A stretch of DNA of 64,000 bases from Hamadaea sp. (GTDB taxonomy: Bacteria; Actinomycetota; Actinomycetes; Mycobacteriales; Micromonosporaceae). Shown here piece by piece: positions 21,490 through 28,292 of the stretch. The translations under genes and the position numbers were made by a program. Where the stretch lies: the NCBI RefSeq assembly GCF_013362815.1, contig NZ_JABFVK010000013.1, positions 372,001 to 436,000 of the forward strand. Direction: 5' to 3'. The notes beneath the pieces are model-generated. The model saw only the letters and a list, made by a program, of their open reading frames with translations. It did no database searches and was not told where the DNA came from. The first letter of the stretch is position 1; every line of letters begins with the position of its first letter.

Positions 21490-22806
21490 TCACCGGACCC
21501 GGCCGCGAATGTGGCCGGGCTCGATGTGCAGTTCGGGCCCGAGGTCGACGACGACCGTCGTTCCGCCGCCCGGTGTCGGTCCGACGGTCAGCCGCCCGCC
21601 GGCCGCGCTCGCCGTCCGGCGGGCGATGTCGAGGCCCAGTCCGGTAGAGCCGTCGCCGCTGGCCCCGCGCTGCAGCGGGAGTGTCGCCGGGATGCCGGGG
21701 CCGTGGTCGGTGATGGTCAAGCCCACCCGTCCAGAACGGTCGTCTCGGACCAGCTCGGCTCGAAGCGACGTGCCTTCGCGCGTGTGAGCGAAGACGTTTC
21801 CCAGCAAGGCGTCGACGCATACGCCCAGCTCGTCGGCGGAAAGTCCGATCATCATCGGGCCGGTTGGCAGCACCACGTCGAAGCCGCGTTGTTCCTCCTC
21901 GGCAAGCGGCGACCAGAACTCCATCCGATCCCGGACCTCGCGTACGGCGTCGCAAGAACCGGAATCGGTCGGTAGAACGGGCCGGCGCGCCAGCCGGATG
22001 ACATCGTCGACCGCCTTCTCCAAGGCGGCCGTGTCGGCCGCGATACGAGCGCGTTCGGCCGGATCGGCAAGCGCCTCGGCGTCGATGCGCAGGGCCGTCA
22101 GCGGGGTTCGGAGGCGATGGGACAGATCCGCCGCCGCCTCCCGTTCGTGAGTCACGAGGTCCCCGATCCGGGCTGCCATCCGGTTCAGGCCCAGGGCGAC
22201 CTGGCGTACCTCGCGGGCACCGGTGACCTCGCCGCGTGCCGTCAGGTCGCCGGTCGCCAGACGCTCGGCCAGCCGCCCGACCCCGGCCAACGGCCGCACC
22301 AGGGCGTTGGCCAGACGATCGGCCACGACGACGCTGACGAGCAGCACGCCCAAGCCCAATCCACCCAATACGAGCCACGACTGCGCGACGCCGTTCGTGA
22401 GCTCGTCGTCCGCCACGTACGCGCGGATCACGGCCGTGCCGTCGGCTCGGCCCTGCACCGCGACGAGCACCTCGCGGCCACCCGGCACGTCGCCGGTCAG
22501 GCTGCGTCCCGAGGAGGCTTCGGCGACTGCGGCCGTGCGGACCGCCGGCACGCCGAGCGTGGCTCCATCCGGCAGGAACACCGTCAGTGGATGTGCGGCC
22601 GAGACATTGGCTTGATCGAGAGCTTGGCGGATCGTCTCGTCGGTGCCGGCGGCGACGGTCGGGACGAACGTCTGGGCCTCCAAGGAGGTGGCCGCCACGG
22701 CGCGGTCGGCGGCCGCCGACCGGACGAGCAGCGCGAGCGGCACGAGAAACCCGACCAGCACCAGCGAGCTGGTGGCCACGGCCAGGAGGATCAGGCGTAC
22801 GCGCAT
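21490..22806 (-). CDS. sensor histidine kinase, HisKA/HATPase with HAMP
   Basis: A 438-residue sensor kinase. A first membrane helix (5-30), an extracytoplasmic domain (about 33-140), a second helix (142-162), a HAMP region ('[20 protein letters not shown]'), the HisKA motif with His230 (ADLSHRLRTPL) and an HATPase ending 'STGLGLDIARRTASAAGGRL' are visible. The response regulator lies seven bases upstream on the same strand. The pair sits beside the flavin electron-transfer operon and may control it (inference from neighbourhood). Confidence 0.92.
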   Translation of the reverse strand: MRVRLILLAVATSSLVLVGFLVPLALLVRSAAADRAVAATSLEAQTFVPTVAAGTDETIRQALDQANVSAAHPLTVFLPDGATLGVPAVRTAAVAEASSGRSLTGDVPGGREVLVAVQGRADGTAVIRAYVADDELTNGVAQSWLVLGGLGLGVLLVSVVVADRLANALVRPLAGVGRLAERLATGDLTARGEVTGAREVRQVALGLNRMAARIGDLVTHEREAAADLSHRLRTPLTALRIDAEALADPAERARIAADTAALEKAVDDVIRLARRPVLPTDSGSCDAVREVRDRMEFWSPLAEEEQRGFDVVLPTGPMMIGLSADELGVCVDALLGNVFAHTREGTSLRAELVRDDRSGRVGLTITDHGPGIPATLPLQRGASGDGSTGLGLDIARRTASAAGGRLTVGPTPGGGTTVVVDLGPELHIEPGHIRGRVR

Positions 22807-22813
22807 CTACCGG

Positions 22814-23503
22814 TCAGTCCTCGTCGCCGGGTGCGGTCAGCCTGACGCCGACGCCCCGCACGGTATGCAGGTAGCGCGGCGCGGCCGCCTGCTCTCCCAG
22901 TTTGCGCCGGAGCCATGACACGTGCACGTCGACGGTCTTGTCGGCCGAGCCGAACGGCTGACGCCAGACCTCGGTGAGCAACTCGCGCTTGGTGACCACG
23001 GCTCCGGGGCGCTGAATGAGGTAGCTGAGCAGATCGAACTCGCGTGGCGTCAGCTCCACCGCCCGGCCGTCGATCGAGACCTCACGAGTGACCGGGTCGA
23101 GTACCAGACCACCGACGGCGATCGGGCCACGGGTGGCCGCCGAACCGCCCCGCCGCAGCACGGCTCGAATACGAGCGTCCAGCTGTGCTGCTCCGAAGGG
23201 CTTGTGCACGTAGTCGTCAGCGCCGAGGTCCAGGGCTTCCACGACGGCCGGCTCGCCGTCGCGTGCGGTGGCCACGATCACCGGAACGTCGCTGACCGAT
23301 CGCAGCATGCGCAGCACGTCGCGGCCGTCGACGTCCGGCAATCCCAGATCCAGGACGATCAGGTCAGGGCGGCTGTCGACGGCGGCCTGCAGCGCGGCGA
23401 AACCGCTGGCCGCGCTCGCGACGGAGTGACCCCGGTCCGACAACGCGCGGATCAGCGCGCGGCGGATCTCCGGGTCGTCCTCGACCAGCAGCAGATGGGC
23501 CAC
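22814..23503 (-). CDS. OmpR-family response regulator
   Basis: A 229-residue regulator. Receiver domain 1-118 with Asp9-Asp10, phospho-acceptor Asp52 (LIVLDLGLPD) and the Lys in 'VHKPF'; winged helix 125-225 with 'LTPREFDLLSYLIQRPG' and 'DVHVSWLRRKLGE'. The DNA-binding domain is unusually close to that of the STAS-HATPase fusion at 27127-28292, so both may read the same sites. GTG start at 23503; no strong ribosome-binding site. Confidence 0.93.
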   Translation of the reverse strand: MAHLLLVEDDPEIRRALIRALSDRGHSVASAASGFAALQAAVDSRPDLIVLDLGLPDVDGRDVLRMLRSVSDVPVIVATARDGEPAVVEALDLGADDYVHKPFGAAQLDARIRAVLRRGGSAATRGPIAVGGLVLDPVTREVSIDGRAVELTPREFDLLSYLIQRPGAVVTKRELLTEVWRQPFGSADKTVDVHVSWLRRKLGEQAAAPRYLHTVRGVGVRLTAPGDED

Positions 23504-23602
23504 GCAGCCACACTAGTGGCCGGGCCGTCGGCCACCTAGCGCGGCGGAAATCTATGTCGTGCTTAACCGCGCCTTATCCGACGATGTGTCATCGTTGCCG
23601 GT

Positions 23603-24052
23603 ATGCGATGGAGGCCGAGCCGCGCTGTCGGCGGGGTGCTCGCCTGGGGCGCCGGTGCGGTCACGGCGATCGCTGTGGGGGTGCTCGCCCTGTCACTTAT
23701 CGGCAGCTCGCTCGTCGACCGGCGATTGCCCCCGACCACGATGCGGCTCGACCCCGCTGGATCCGCGTCATCGCCGTCGATCGTACCCACCATCGACCCA
23801 GCCCCGACCGCGGTGGAGCGCACGCTGACGACAGCCGCGGGCTCGGTGGTGGCTCGATGCGCGAACGGTCACGCTTACCTGGTGTCATGGAGCCCGGCCC
23901 AAGGCTATCGCGCCGAGAATGTGCGCCGGGGCCCGGCACAGACCGCTCGGGTCGAGTTCGAGTCCCGGTCGGAGGCGGCCGTGCTCCGGGTGACTTGCGC
24001 GGGCGGTACGCCGCAAGTAGCCGTGGGCCACGATGACGAACACGATCACTGA
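23603..24052 (+). CDS. membrane-anchored hypothetical protein
   Basis: A 149-residue protein with one N-terminal transmembrane helix (about 10-35), a Ser/Pro-rich linker and a beta-rich extracytoplasmic domain with two cysteines ('VVARCANGHAYLVSWSP' and 'LRVTCAGG') that may form a disulfide. The C-terminus is His/Asp-rich (GHDDEHDH) and could bind metal. It lies opposite the two-component operon and overlaps the ApbE stop by seven bases on the other strand. Function unknown; an envelope sensor or chaperone for the neighbouring electron-transfer proteins is only a guess. Confidence 0.7.
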   Translation: MRWRPSRAVGGVLAWGAGAVTAIAVGVLALSLIGSSLVDRRLPPTTMRLDPAGSASSPSIVPTIDPAPTAVERTLTTAAGSVVARCANGHAYLVSWSPAQGYRAENVRRGPAQTARVEFESRSEAAVLRVTCAGGTPQVAVGHDDEHDH

Positions 24053-24825
24053 TAGCTGGCGTCGACGACCGGCAGACCCGCTGAAACGTATGCGTGTCCG
24101 TCCGCGGTGATCGCCGCGGACTCGTAGCCGTCGAGCGCGCCCAGCCAGGCCAAGCCCTTGTGGCCCATCGCCACCGCCGCTGTGGCGTACGCGTCGGCCG
24201 TGGCCAGGTCCGCGCCCACGACTGTGACGGATACGAGTTCGTCGGCTCCGCGGCCGGTGAACGGGTCGATCACGTGCAGGCCTCGTTCATATGTGCCCGA
24301 TGTCGCCACGGCGGTGCCGGTGAGCTCGAGGACCCAGGCCACCTGATCCTTCTCCCAGGGGTGTTGAATACCCACACGCCACGGTTGCCCGGAGCCGGCG
24401 TGGCCTCTGGCGTAGACGTCACCGCCGGCGTTGACGCAATGGTTGGGGGCGCCTGCGGCGGCGAGCGCGTCGGACGCGACCTGAACCGACCAACCCTTGA
24501 CATAGCCGGACGGGTCGAGCCGCCCGGGGGCGAAGACGTCGAAGTAGCCGCCGGTGACCCGCCACAGCCGGTGGCATTCGTCCAGGACGTGCCGCAGCGG
24601 TAGCGAACGGTCGTCCGACCTGATCTCGCCGCGGTGCACCCGGCAGATCTCGCTGTCAGATTTGTAGGTGCTGAACCGCGCGTCGACCTCCCGGAACCAG
24701 TCGAACGCCGCCGTCACCAGATCGTGCGCGAGGTCGCCCGCCAGCGGGTCGGCGATCTCGATACTGATGGCGGTGCCCATGATCTGCTCGACGCGGTGCA
24801 CGCCGGTGTGCGTATCCCTGCTCAT
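24046..24825 (-). CDS. apbE: FAD:protein FMN transferase (ApbE)
   Basis: A 259-residue ApbE enzyme that attaches FMN covalently to Thr/Ser in target proteins. Visible signatures: 'MGTAISIEI' near the N-terminus, 'DARFSTYKSDSEI', 'LDPSGYVKGWSVQ' (FAD/Mg site) and 'VNAGGDVYARG' (about 128), and the C-terminal 'SVTVVGADLATADAYATA'. No signal peptide is obvious, so flavinylation may happen before or during export. It overlaps the FMN-binding-protein gene by four bases, and that protein carries the acceptor motif. Confidence 0.94.
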   Translation of the reverse strand: MSRDTHTGVHRVEQIMGTAISIEIADPLAGDLAHDLVTAAFDWFREVDARFSTYKSDSEICRVHRGEIRSDDRSLPLRHVLDECHRLWRVTGGYFDVFAPGRLDPSGYVKGWSVQVASDALAAAGAPNHCVNAGGDVYARGHAGSGQPWRVGIQHPWEKDQVAWVLELTGTAVATSGTYERGLHVIDPFTGRGADELVSVTVVGADLATADAYATAAVAMGHKGLAWLGALDGYESAAITADGHAYVSAGLPVVDASYQ

Positions 24826-25406
24826 GCGCGGGCCTGGTTGATCGCGGCCGCAAGCGACTGCTTGTAGGCCGAGCTGGTGTAGGTCGCGCCGGAAACGGAC
24901 TGGATGCTGGCGCTTTGCGCCGTCAGCACGCGGGCGTTGAGCTTGCCGATGGCGTTGGAGCTGATCGACGCGGACTCGCCCTCGCAGGGATTGGTGCAGG
25001 TGGCCGAGGCGTTGGTGATCCTTCCGCCGCTGACGACGATCGTCACCTTGATCACGCCGTAGCGTTCGGTGACCCCGGCACCCGCGAAAGTGCCGTTTCG
25101 CAGGCCGGTTGCGGCCGTCGTGGCAGGCGTTGCCGGTCGTGTCGGCGAAGCGGCCGGGCGAACGCTCGTCGTCGCGGACGGTGGGGCCGCGCCGGGGCTG
25201 GACTTCGTGGGCAGCGGCGATCCCGACGGGAGTGCCGACGGGGTGGTCTCGGCGCTCGCCGACTGGGTCGCGAGCGTGCCATCCGCTGGGGCGAGCACGT
25301 CCGCGGGCAGGTCGTCGGGCTCGTCAGCGTGATGGCCCAGCTTGGCCCCGATCATCAACATGGTGCCCAGCACGGTGGCGAAGATCGCCGCGACTCCTCG
25401 GCGCAT
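24822..25406 (-). CDS. secreted FMN_bind-domain protein, flavinylation target
   Basis: A 194-residue exported protein. An N-terminal helix (about 4-22) is followed by a long Ser/Thr/Pro/Ala linker (40-100) and a C-terminal FMN_bind domain with the flavinylation motif SGAT at 172-175 (Thr175 as acceptor). Two cysteines in 'ATCTNPCEGE' may form a disulfide. It is co-translated with ApbE and follows the ferric-reductase-like gene. Known FMN_bind/ApbE pairs move electrons across or outside the membrane, which is the inferred role. Confidence 0.92.
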   Translation of the reverse strand: MRRGVAAIFATVLGTMLMIGAKLGHHADEPDDLPADVLAPADGTLATQSASAETTPSALPSGSPLPTKSSPGAAPPSATTSVRPAASPTRPATPATTAATGLRNGTFAGAGVTERYGVIKVTIVVSGGRITNASATCTNPCEGESASISSNAIGKLNARVLTAQSASIQSVSGATYTSSAYKQSLAAAINQARA

Positions 25407-25445: not shown

Positions 25446-27062
25446 TCAGAATTCGAACGGGTCGAGGTGAATCTGCCGACGCGGAACGCGCAGTCGCCGC
25501 AGAGTCTCCAGCGACGCGCCCACCAGGCCCGGCGGCCCGCACAGGAAGACGTCGCGCCGGGTGACGTCCGGGATGAGCTTTTTCATGCCAACCGGAGTGA
25601 AAAGGTGCCTGGGGCCCGGTTCGTCGCGACCGCCGATGACGTACCAGACCTCGGCTCCCCGTTCGCTGGCCAGCCAATTCAGCTCCCGCCGGAAGACCAC
25701 GTCGGCGGGTGTGCTCGCGCGATAGAGCATGATCGTGCCCGGCGGAAGGTCCTCCAGTAACGCGCGGATCGGCGCGATGCCACTTCCGCCGGCGATGAGC
25801 AGTGCCCGGCGTTTGACCCTGCGGTCCGCGGTGAACACCCCCGACGGACCCTCGGCGAGGACTCGGACCCCGGGCTCCAGGTACTGCAGCTCTTCGGTAT
25901 GGTCGCCGACCACCTTCACCGTGAGCCGCAGCCACTCGTGGTTCGGCGCCGCCGACAGCGAGAACGGATGCGCCTGCCACCAGCAGCCGCGGGCCAGGAA
26001 ACGCCACCGGAAGAACTGGCCGGCGCGGGCGTTGATCCGGTCGAGCCGCCGGCCGCCGATGTAGATCGAGATCATGTCCTGGCCCTCGGGGACCACCCCG
26101 GTGACGCGCAGACGATGGCGGGCGTTCAACGCCAAGGGAGCCAGCAGTCGACCCCACGCCAGGTTGGCCAGTACGAAGACGTACAGGGCGATCCAATAGG
26201 AACGCGCGAAGCCGGGCATCGAGAGCTCTTGGCCGGTCGCGAACTGGTGCCCGTAGCCGAGGATCAAGATCAGATAGCTGGCCAGGTGCAGGTAATACCA
26301 CGTCTCGTAGCGCATCAACCGGCGTATCGCCCGGATCGCCAGCAAGCCGATCGCGACCAGGATGCCCGTCGCCGCGGTCGCGCTCAGCATGTCCTCGTAG
26401 GTGGTGACCATCGTCCAGGTCTCGTGAAGCACCGGCTGGTGGCTGAGCAAGGCGTACCCGACGATCGTGGCGGCGACGTGGGCGAGGATCGCGAACAGCA
26501 GATAGCCGCCGAGGGCACGGTGCCAGATCAGGAGATCGTGCGCGCCGATCCAGCGCTCCAGCCAGCCGGCGCGGCTCATCGTGAGCACCTGGAACAGCAG
26601 AATGAAGCCGCCGGCCAGGCCGGTGATGCGTCCGGTCGCGATCCAGACGTCAGCCGGGCTGGTGAGCGAGCGCGCCGGGGTGTCCAGCCACCACAGCTCC
26701 AGGCTCGTCATCAGTGTGAACCAGAACATGATCTGGAAGAACGACCGGCCCGATCGGCTCGACGACCCTGAAGGCTGTTCCGGAGGGCCGGATCGCTGGG
26801 TGGGAACGGCGCGCGACGCGGGGGCTGAGCGCACCCGTTCGCCCTGGTCGAGAGCTTCGGTGGGCCTGGAGGGGAGCGTCGCGAGGGTCGTCGTCGGAGC
26901 CAGCCCGAGCCAGTCGCGCATCGACTCGGGGTCAGGCTCCCGTGACCACCCTTGGTCGGACCAGCGGGCGTCGAAGCTGTGCGGTTCGGTAGGGCGACGA
27001 TCCGCCCGGGCCGTGTCGAGCGGTCCGGGCGAGGCGCGGTGCAGCGATCGGGTGTTGTCCAT
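25446..27062 (-). CDS. ferric reductase-like transmembrane oxidoreductase with FAD/NAD(P) domain
   Basis: A 538-residue membrane flavoprotein. After a soluble N-terminus of about 120 residues come roughly six transmembrane helices (125-310), with helix histidines such as 'LIWHRALGGYLLFAILAHVAAT' and 'WYYLHLASYLILILGYGHQF' positioned for heme ligation. The reductase half has 'HPFSLSAAP' (FAD), 'LLIAGGSGIAPIRALLE' (NAD(P)H) and 'VFLCGPPG'. The ATG at 27062 has GAAGG upstream. In series with the flavinylated protein downstream it forms a plausible NAD(P)H-to-extracytoplasm electron route. Confidence 0.9.
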   Translation of the reverse strand: MDNTRSLHRASPGPLDTARADRRPTEPHSFDARWSDQGWSREPDPESMRDWLGLAPTTTLATLPSRPTEALDQGERVRSAPASRAVPTQRSGPPEQPSGSSSRSGRSFFQIMFWFTLMTSLELWWLDTPARSLTSPADVWIATGRITGLAGGFILLFQVLTMSRAGWLERWIGAHDLLIWHRALGGYLLFAILAHVAATIVGYALLSHQPVLHETWTMVTTYEDMLSATAATGILVAIGLLAIRAIRRLMRYETWYYLHLASYLILILGYGHQFATGQELSMPGFARSYWIALYVFVLANLAWGRLLAPLALNARHRLRVTGVVPEGQDMISIYIGGRRLDRINARAGQFFRWRFLARGCWWQAHPFSLSAAPNHEWLRLTVKVVGDHTEELQYLEPGVRVLAEGPSGVFTADRRVKRRALLIAGGSGIAPIRALLEDLPPGTIMLYRASTPADVVFRRELNWLASERGAEVWYVIGGRDEPGPRHLFTPVGMKKLIPDVTRRDVFLCGPPGLVGASLETLRRLRVPRRQIHLDPFEF

Positions 27063-27126
27063 CGCCTTCGGTCCTACCAACCGCCGTCGGCGCTCACAAC
27101 GGCTGAACGGAAGCCTTGTAGGAGCA

Positions 27127-28292
27127 TTAACCCTGTCTTGAGAGTGGCGGCCCCCCCTCGGGAGGGGTGCTCAGGCGCAAGCCCAGACCGGGGACGGTGT
27201 GCAAGTAGTACGGCGAGGCCGGCGACTCGCCCAGTTTCCGGCGCAGCCGGGAGACGTGCACGTCGATGGTGCGGTCGTCGGAGCCGACGGGGCGTTGCCA
27301 GACCCGGGTCAACAGCTCACGTCTGGTCACCACCGTGTCCGGACGCCGCATCAGGTAACCGAGCAGATCGAATTCCCGGGGCGTCAGGTCGAGCGGCCGG
27401 CCGTCCAAGGTGACCTCGCGTAGCGTCCGATCGAGGATCAGGCCGCCGAAGGTGATCACCGGATACGAGTCGACGCCTTTTCCGGACTGCGTCCGCCGTG
27501 CGGTCGGCAGAGCGGAGAACTGGGCCGTCGTCGCCCGGACGGTCGCCCAGACGATCTTGCCGTCCGCGACCGCACGCATGCCCCACGCAGTGGCGGCTGC
27601 CGCAACCCGCTGAAGCCCAGCTGAAGCCCATGAGCGTGCTGCTGTTCCCAATCCCGGATCGAAATGGTCGGGCGCAAGACGGGCATCCGGACGCTGTGGT
27701 CGTGTACGCGGATTCGGAGGAGGTCCGATTGCAGCGAGACGGTGAGTTCCGCGCCGTCCCCGGCGTGGGCGATCGCGTTGGCGACCAGCTCGGTCGTGAT
27801 GCGCCGAGCGGCGTCCTGGAGCCAGGGCACGTCCCAGTTCAAGCAGGCCGCGCCAGCCTGATTGCGGGCGTAGTTGACGGTTTCGGGATGCGGCTCCAGC
27901 GCGAGATGGAGCCAACGGTGGGGCGTGATCCTGGTGGCGACGAACCGAGCCGCGGCGACGGTGGGAGAAGTGGTCAGACGCCGGCCGACCGGGGTGCGAG
28001 CCAGCTCGTCTTCCGGCAGCACCACGACCAGAAGGACGCCGTGGCGAGCAACCCAGCGTTGCTCGGTGGCGAGCGCGACCGGCATCAGCGCATCGGCCGT
28101 CGGCGTCACGCCGGTGACGTCGACGACGATCGCGGCGGGGTCGTCTGCGAGGCATTTGCGAATCAGCCGCCGTAGGTCGGCGTGGCCGGCGCGGTCGTAG
28201 TCACCGGTCAGCGTCGCCAGCCAGACGCCCTCCTGCCAGTCGTGCTCGATGGACGAGGTGAGCACGGTTCCAACGTTACGCTCCACGGCCAT
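27127..28292 (-). pseudogene. STAS-HATPase-winged-helix regulator, frameshifted by 11-bp duplication
   Basis: Two adjoining frames together encode one protein. From ATG 28292: a STAS-like domain ('AAIVVDVTGVTPTADALMPVALATEQ'-type) and an anti-sigma-like HATPase ('RRITTELVANAIAHAG', then 'LLRIRVHDHS'). The frame is lost at a perfect tandem repeat (27609-27630). Downstream, the next frame continues the HATPase ('LQRVAAAATAWGMRAVADGKIVWATVR') and runs without a stop into an OmpR-type winged helix ('LTPREFDLLGYLMRRPD', 'DVHVSRLRRKLGE') that ends at 27127. Deleting one repeat copy restores a single frame. The start could also be the GTG at 28265. Either a genuine lesion, phase variation or an assembly error. 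Confidence 0.75.
27609..27630. repeat. 11-bp perfect tandem duplication
   Basis: GCTGAAGCCCA occurs twice in direct succession (27609-27619, 27620-27630). Eleven is not a multiple of three, so the duplication shifts the frame of the regulator gene it lies in. Confidence 0.95.

What the first reader, a model, noticed from the sequence alone, without database searches (positions are those of the whole stretch)
27127..28292. Unusual STAS-HATPase-winged-helix regulator architecture
With the duplication removed, one polypeptide would join a STAS domain, an RsbW-like anti-sigma ATPase and an OmpR-type DNA-binding domain. STAS and HATPase normally act on separate partners in sigma-factor switching, and I know of no common family combining all three with a winged helix. 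It would let a partner-switch module act directly on DNA.
Basis: partly seen in the sequence, partly recalled or inferred. Interest (0 to 1): 0.65.

Follow-up and report, generated by a model that had tools for sequence, protein, structure and literature searches.

The report
Stress-switch module fused to DNA-binding domain
In an actinobacterium and a close relative, a protein module that normally holds stress sigma factors in check has been joined to a DNA-binding domain, so that stress switching could act directly on particular genes; the copy in this stretch of sequence is interrupted by a small duplication, but two intact copies exist in the relative.

Summary
On the minus strand, 28292-27633 reads STAS plus RsbW-like ATPase; a perfect 11-bp tandem duplication (27609-27630) shifts the frame, and the OmpR-type winged helix (27402-27175) continues in another frame. 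STAS plus ATPase in one chain is ordinary in this family: Actinoplanes SipA has it, and in 7 of 108 held loci (some overlapping) it sits beside a sigma factor carrying a STAS domain. The unusual part is the added winged helix, found in 2 of 4 Hamadaea genomes and in no other of 354 family genomes searched. One other relative has apparently independently joined the module to two LuxR-type HTH domains. The winged helix resembles that of a response regulator 4 kb away, whose putative operator overlaps the fusion gene's stop codon before a ferric-reductase-like cluster. Best reading: a SipA-like partner-switch module turned into a DNA-binding regulator; this copy is recently broken or mis-assembled. 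DNA binding and partner control are inferred, not shown. New variant of a known kind.

The parts
27933..28265 (-). STAS domain (approximate limits); canonical phospho-serine position holds Asp
   Evidence: Family profile A3 matches SpoIIAA/RsfB within positions 5-120; phospho-site column: Ser in 1 of 30 rows, Asp in the window
27633..27920 (-). RsbW/SpoIIAB-like ATPase domain, N-terminal part (approximate; up to the frame break)
   Evidence: Profile A3 matches SpoIIAB over positions 127-226; N-box Glu and Asn and G1-box Asp in 30 of 30 rows
27609..27630 (.). perfect 11-bp tandem duplication that shifts the frame inside the ATPase domain
   Evidence: Tandem Repeats Finder, period 11, 2.0 copies, 100%; the intact homologues read through here without a break
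27130..27606 (-). downstream frame: end of the ATPase domain, linker and winged helix; stop at 27127-27129
27175..27402 (-). OmpR/PhoB-type winged-helix DNA-binding domain (Trans_reg_C)
   Evidence: 92 bits, E 2.6e-26
22814..23503 (-). neighbouring OmpR-type response regulator; its winged helix is 62% identical to that of the fusion (74% at DNA level over 264 bases)
21490..22806 (-). histidine kinase beside that response regulator
   Evidence: HAMP, HisKA, HATPase_c
25446..27062 (-). ferric-reductase-like membrane flavoprotein, next gene downstream of the fusion (start codon uncertain: TTG 27080 or ATG 27062)
   Evidence: Ferric_reduct, FAD_binding_8, NAD_binding_1; 68% identical in H. tsunoensis
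24822..25406 (-). FMN_bind protein of the same conserved cluster
24046..24825 (-). ApbE-type flavin transferase of the same conserved cluster
23562..23579 (-). putative response-regulator box GGATAAG-N4-GGTTAAG upstream of the response regulator
   Evidence: exact match; the only exact one in the window genome; motif read off these sites, so partly circular
27115..27143 (-). putative three-unit operator (11-bp period) before the ferric-reductase-like gene, overlapping the fusion gene's stop codon
   Evidence: same place and unit order as L069:3318-3346 in H. tsunoensis; weak in the window (3 mismatches per pair of units, a level at which chance matches are common)

Best explanation
The gene belongs to a small Hamadaea family in which a SipA-like partner-switch module (N-terminal STAS plus RsbW-like ATPase) has been joined, probably once, to the winged helix of an OmpR/PhoB-type response regulator. 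By analogy with SipA, the ATPase domain binds its own STAS in a closed state; a competing STAS protein, possibly a sigma factor with a STAS domain, would open it and so change dimerisation or exposure of the winged helix on its target promoter. The STAS lacks the phosphorylatable serine, so I expect control by competitive binding and nucleotide state, not by phosphorylation of its own STAS. In this genome the gene sits just upstream of a ferric-reductase/FMN-binding/ApbE cluster and its response-regulator/kinase pair, and may have acted on that cluster. The 11-bp duplication has interrupted this copy recently, or is an assembly error. Shown here: architecture, common descent of the three fusions on their STAS-ATPase part, retention of ATPase residues, loss of the phospho-site, neighbourhood. 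Inferred: DNA binding, autoinhibition, partner, target.
For: Two intact in-frame homologues. The STAS-ATPase parts of the three fusions form one clade (SH-aLRT 95), sister to the H. tsunoensis protein without the winged helix. Profile match to SpoIIAA/RsfB and SpoIIAB; a low-confidence AlphaFold model of the H. tsunoensis module (mean pLDDT 62) finds the same two folds among its matches. Catalytic Glu/Asn and G1 Asp in 30 of 30, phospho-Ser in 1 of 30. Of 108 held loci of the module family (118 module ORFs, 104 distinct, the window's own included), 10 have a SigB/F/G-like gene beside the module, 7 of them with a STAS match in the same frame, as for SipA and sigma-SsdA (PMC10733313). A second, apparently independent module-HTH fusion in G075. 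The winged helix resembles the neighbouring response regulator's and its recognition region reads almost the same by eye. SigB/F/G sigma factors over the family cut-off in 4 of 4 Hamadaea genomes.
Against: Only three fusion genes in two genomes are known, and one is broken. On the winged-helix tree the three do not group; a single origin is only not rejected (p-AU 0.30), and the winged helices of both G061 copies are on long branches. No SigB/F/G-like gene lies in the 64-kb window or within about 7-11 kb of the other fusions (other sigma types were not sought), and none of the five G000 sigma genes read, of 25 matches, carries a STAS match. Each genome has 47-56 HATPase_c_2 matches, so the partner is not constrained. 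The three fusions lie beside three different gene sets, so no conserved target is shown. No response-regulator box with up to one mismatch lies near the two G061 fusions, and genome-wide the one-mismatch box counts do not exceed the backward control. Only 4-10 candidates per genome were scored in the wide searches.
Confidence: 0.55

Rival explanations
1. A decayed chance fusion: gene fusion happened once, has no lasting role, and is being lost (this copy frame-broken, one G061 copy with a diverging winged helix).
For: Frame break in the window; the G061a winged helix has lost the usual recognition residues by eye and has the longest branch of the three; present in only 2 of 4 genus genomes, one of those four 87% complete.
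Against: Two G061 copies about 58% identical to each other over the STAS-ATPase part are both fully open; the window winged helix still scores 92 bits; third codon positions differ most in all six comparisons of copies, though only slightly for the C-terminal part of the two G061 copies.
Confidence: 0.2
2. Sequencing or assembly error: the window gene is intact in the organism and the 11-bp repeat is an artefact of a 124-contig draft.
For: Both halves look coding and unspoilt apart from the single break; draft assembly of 124 contigs.
Against: An exact short tandem copy is a usual natural slippage mutation (general knowledge); no reads or second assembly of this strain could be examined.
Confidence: 0.3
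3. An on/off switch: the two-copy 11-bp repeat is gained and lost by slippage, so cells alternate between full-length fusion and a truncated protein.
For: Perfect short tandem repeat whose copy number sets the frame; flanking frames unspoilt.
Against: Only two copies; neither intact homologue is broken there; no population data.
Confidence: 0.07
4. Two separate proteins: a truncated STAS-ATPase and a stand-alone winged helix from an internal start.
For: ATG at 27579 lies in the downstream frame ahead of the winged helix.
Against: No clear ribosome-binding site by eye before 27579; the break removes the end of the ATPase domain; homologues keep one frame.
Confidence: 0.06

Closest known systems
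SipA / sigma-SsdA system of Actinoplanes missouriensis (PMC10733313)
   Same: STAS plus RsbW-like ATPase in one chain; relatives of the window module lie beside sigma factors that carry a STAS domain (7 of 108 held loci), as SipA pairs with sigma-SsdA; linked there to oxidative stress
   Different: SipA is 243 residues and ends after the ATPase domain; no DNA-binding domain; no SigB/F/G-like gene found beside the Hamadaea fusions. SipA's own sequence was not compared: it was not fetched
OmpR/PhoB-family response regulators (neighbour at 22814-23503)
   Same: same Trans_reg_C winged helix, 62% identical residues
   Different: no receiver domain match in the fusion; the input is a STAS-ATPase module instead
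SpoIIAB/RsbW with SpoIIAA/RsbV
   Same: both folds recognised by profile; ATPase N-box and G1 residues kept
   Different: partners fused in one chain; phospho-serine of STAS not kept; winged helix added
Rv1364c of Mycobacterium tuberculosis (PMC10950880, passages read)
   Same: ATPase and STAS in one chain
   Different: joined to PAS and PP2C phosphatase domains and with a phosphorylated serine, not to a DNA-binding domain
STAS-ATPase-GerE-GerE protein of genome G075 (L078:1995-3365:+)
   Same: same module followed by DNA-binding domains
   Different: two LuxR-type HTH instead of one winged helix; apparently separate origin; found here, no description met in my searches

Membership tests
SipA-type STAS plus RsbW-like protein | N-terminal STAS followed by RsbW-like ATPase in one chain | tested here: met
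   (window up to the frame break; complete in L006, L035)
SipA-type STAS plus RsbW-like protein | neighbouring sigma factor carrying a STAS domain | tested here: not met
   no SigB/F/G-like gene in the window or near the G061 copies; seen at 7 of 108 held loci of the module family
SipA-type STAS plus RsbW-like protein | ATPase domain binds its own STAS and that of the sigma factor | not testable with these tools
   shown for SipA by two-hybrid (PMC10733313 section 8)
SipA-type STAS plus RsbW-like protein | chain ends after the ATPase domain | tested here: not met
   winged helix follows in frame in L006 and L035
OmpR/PhoB response regulator | Trans_reg_C winged helix | tested here: met
   92 bits in the window, 80.5 and 66.1 in the intact copies
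OmpR/PhoB response regulator | receiver domain with phospho-aspartate | tested here: not met
   no Response_reg match in the window frames or intact copies
SpoIIAB/RsbW anti-sigma kinase | N-box Glu/Asn and G1-box Asp of the ATP site | tested here: met
   30 of 30 rows
SpoIIAB/RsbW anti-sigma kinase | binds a sigma factor and phosphorylates a STAS antagonist | not testable with these tools
   needs biochemistry
SpoIIAA/RsbV phospho-regulated STAS | phosphorylatable Ser/Thr at the canonical site | tested here: not met
   column 70 of A3: Ser in 1 of 30 rows, window Asp, G061 copies Pro and Gly; a gap nearby makes the exact column slightly uncertain, and neighbouring columns hold some Ser/Thr

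The most novel reading that the evidence does not exclude
A partner-switch transcription factor: the winged helix holds the protein on the operator of the response regulator's redox operon, while the ATPase domain captures or releases a STAS-bearing sigma factor at that promoter, so anti-sigma control becomes promoter-specific; the 11-bp repeat in this strain would be a reversible off-switch. The second, apparently independent fusion to LuxR-type HTH domains would mean that the module is a general, portable input for DNA-binding domains.
Probability: 0.13. Interest if true: 0.8.

Novelty: new variant of a known kind. Interest (0 to 1): 0.55.

Why it matters
Partner switching is known as control of sigma factors by partner proteins. 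A chain that puts the whole switch on a DNA-binding domain would let it act on single promoters without a dedicated sigma factor. The intact Hamadaea homologues and the separate LuxR-type fusion make that directly testable, and suggest that the SipA-like module has been coupled to DNA-binding domains at least twice.

Tried and rejected
Considered and set aside: (1) that the winged helix is a separate gene with its own start, because both intact homologues keep one frame. (2) That STAS plus ATPase in one chain is the novelty; it is common here and described (SipA). (3) That the fusion is widespread: no full-length match outside Hamadaea in 354 family genomes (E 1e-40), 394 genomes of the class (E 1e-26) or 183 of the phylum (E 1e-40), with the limit of 4-10 scored candidates per genome. 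(4) A frame break in a module gene of another genus (L127): no HTH follows. (5) Response-regulator boxes near the G061 fusions: none with up to one mismatch; one with two mismatches at L072:7944 lies inside a long ORF. Genome-wide, box counts with up to one mismatch against the pattern read backwards: G000 5 against 6, G039 16 against 20, G061 14 against 12, G080 7 against 14. Exact matches: G000 one (before the response regulator), G039 two (one before the ferric-reductase-like gene), G061 none, G080 one (elsewhere). (6) Leptospira LvrC, the top fold hit: rmsd about 18 A over both domains of a low-confidence model, not used; paper listing only. (7) A shared 20-mer between upstream regions: several pairs reach 15-16 of 20, mostly also reached by shuffles.

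Literature searched for a STAS/ATPase/DNA-binding fusion; none of the listed titles or abstract starts described one; the SipA paper came. The library lacks most subscription journals. Papers: PMC10733313 abstract, passages, section 8 and section 14 part 1; PMC10950880 passages; PMC8256260 passages; the rest search listings only.

Full report
What is there. On the minus strand, an ORF opening at ATG 28292 (or GTG 28361) encodes a STAS-like and an RsbW-like ATPase domain; a perfect 11-bp tandem duplication at 27609-27630 shifts it into a frame that stops at 27456-27458. The end of the ATPase domain, a linker and an OmpR-type winged helix follow in another frame, to a stop at 27127-27129. Scanned alone, the first two domains are weak (HATPase_c 24.3 bits, STAS_2 16.9, both under Pfam's cut-off) and the winged helix is strong (92 bits). 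NCBIfam has no match for the first part.

Is the architecture real. The genome held has 124 contigs, and no second full-length copy was found in it by DNA comparison. In the 300 family genomes the two best foreign matches are both in G061, a complete 8.86-Mb genome of the same genus. The genus is Hamadaea by inference: contig length and coordinates of G039 coincide with H. tsunoensis DSM 44101. Both G061 genes are open over STAS, ATPase and winged helix (L006:1027-2202:- and L035:5525-6637:-), and their STAS-ATPase parts are 62 and 59% identical to the window's. The H. tsunoensis relative (44%) ends after the ATPase domain. In G080, the fourth genome of the genus and 87% complete, only more distant modules were found, and the one read has no winged helix.

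Domain identity. An alignment of 30 STAS-ATPase modules (A3), made of 29 of the 34 matched stretches listed plus the window fragment, matches anti-sigma antagonists in the PDB within positions 5-120 (4qtp, E 4e-10; RsfB 8ih8, E 3e-9; SpoIIAA) and SpoIIAB over 127-226 (E about 1e-3). Of the 30 members, 29 match HATPase_c, 27 HATPase_c_2, 11 STAS and 10 STAS_2 at E 0.01. The AlphaFold model of the H. tsunoensis module from two sequences is poor (pLDDT 62, pTM 0.48); after two chains of Leptospira LvrC its best matches are TM1442, anti-sigma antagonists, SpoIIAB and RsbV/RsbW chains. ATP-site Glu, Asn and G1 Asp are present in 30 of 30; the aligned phospho-serine position has Ser in 1 of 30.

How common. 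Matches to the window's STAS-ATPase stretch: 252 of 300 family genomes; the family profile has a match at E 1e-25 in 170 of 394 class genomes, many of them over the ATPase part alone. The winged-helix fusion: at E 1e-40, 3 of 354 family genomes hold a match and all three are Hamadaea, the third (H. tsunoensis) without winged helix. In 394 class genomes at E 1e-26, 113 match, but the rows listed outside G000 begin at profile position 254 or later, that is, are winged helices; in 183 phylum genomes at E 1e-40 only G000 matches. In these searches only 5, 4 and 10 candidates per genome were scored. C-terminal tails were inspected in 27 loci (L008-L034; module ends within 28 residues of the frame's end), 20 loci chosen for long frames (L075-L094) and 64 ORFs of loci L095-L154. 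Apart from the window itself (L125), one gene has a DNA-binding tail: G075 (L078, L095 and L155 are the same gene), with two LuxR-type GerE domains (100 bits). A search of all ORFs of 40 residues or more in the same 108 loci found no other match to that GerE or to the winged helix. Of 354 family genomes only G075 matched the 322-residue query of its module plus first HTH from end to end; three others run past the module only across stop codons.

Origin. On the module tree the three fusions are one clade (SH-aLRT 95) next to the H. tsunoensis protein. The winged helices of all three are nearest by path to the response regulators at 22814-23503 and in H. tsunoensis, but the tree is poorly resolved, both G061 fusions have long branches, the three do not group, and a single origin is only not rejected (p-AU 0.30). 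The window winged helix is 62% identical to the neighbouring response regulator's; its highest identity in the tree, 65%, is to a response regulator of another family (L063).

Neighbourhood. Downstream of the fusion on the same strand come a ferric-reductase-like flavoprotein, FMN_bind and ApbE, then, past a small gene on the other strand, a response regulator and histidine kinase. H. tsunoensis keeps these six genes in the same order (43-77% identity) with no match to the STAS-ATPase part in that 19-kb stretch. In G061 one fusion is followed on the same strand by a SulP permease ORF, and the other lies beside Lactamase_B/rhodanese, rhodanese and TauE genes. A direct repeat GGWYAAG-N4-GGWYAAG was noticed before the response regulators and before the ferric-reductase-like gene. 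The exact match at 23562-23579 is the only exact one in the window genome, and one of two in H. tsunoensis is before the ferric-reductase-like gene; G061 has none and the one in G080 is elsewhere. The motif was read off these sites, so this is partly circular, and counts with up to one mismatch do not exceed the backward control. In the window a weaker three-unit version overlaps the fusion's stop codon.

How it probably works. SipA of A. missouriensis has the same two domains; its ATPase domain binds its own STAS and the STAS of sigma-SsdA (PMC10733313, section 8). In 10 of 108 held loci (overlaps and the window's own locus included) a SigB/F/G-like gene lies beside the module, with a STAS match in 7, so the family is SipA-like by context too. 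The HTH-fused genes have no SigB/F/G-like gene nearby, but neither do most plain ones within the flanks held, about 1.5 kb in most loci. SigB/F/G sigma factors over the cut-off exist in all four Hamadaea genomes; none of the five sigma genes read in G000 or the four in G061 carries a STAS match. I infer a closed STAS-ATPase state opened by a competing STAS protein, changing winged-helix activity. No step of this was tested.

The frame break. Both halves are coding-like; the downstream half has no decayed look. Recent mutation, assembly error and slippage switching cannot be told apart here; no second assembly or reads were examined.

Noticed in passing
L078:1995-3365:+ (genome G075; also L155:8800-10173:+): STAS-ATPase module followed by two closely similar LuxR-type GerE domains in one 457-residue frame: an apparently independent module-HTH fusion.
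   Followed up: partly
window 23562-23579, 27115-27143; L069:3318 and 7005, L068:8576, L070:4178: 11-bp-period direct repeat GGWYAAG-N4-GGWYAAG before the response regulator and the ferric-reductase-like gene: a putative operator of this two-component system.
   Followed up: partly
L016:158-1303:+, L022:103-1296:-, L030:2272-3465:+: SigB/F/G-like sigma factors with a STAS match on the N-terminal side, beside a module gene; the described sigma-SsdA has it at the C-terminal end.
   Followed up: no
L160 (G000:C31:452870-453529, about 17 kb past the window end): A second SigB/F/G-type sigma over the family cut-off in the window genome; each of the other three genus genomes has one over the cut-off. 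It has no STAS match.
   Followed up: partly
L127 (G045): A plain module gene in another genus has its frame broken near the same place, the end of the ATPase domain; no HTH follows.
   Followed up: partly
L006:1051-1272:-: The winged helix of the G061a fusion has lost the usual recognition-helix residues (by eye) and sits on a long branch.
   Followed up: partly
L006:493-1023:+: Next to the G061a fusion an ORF reads like a CsoR-type regulator (recognised by eye, no family call), before rhodanese and TauE genes.
   Followed up: no
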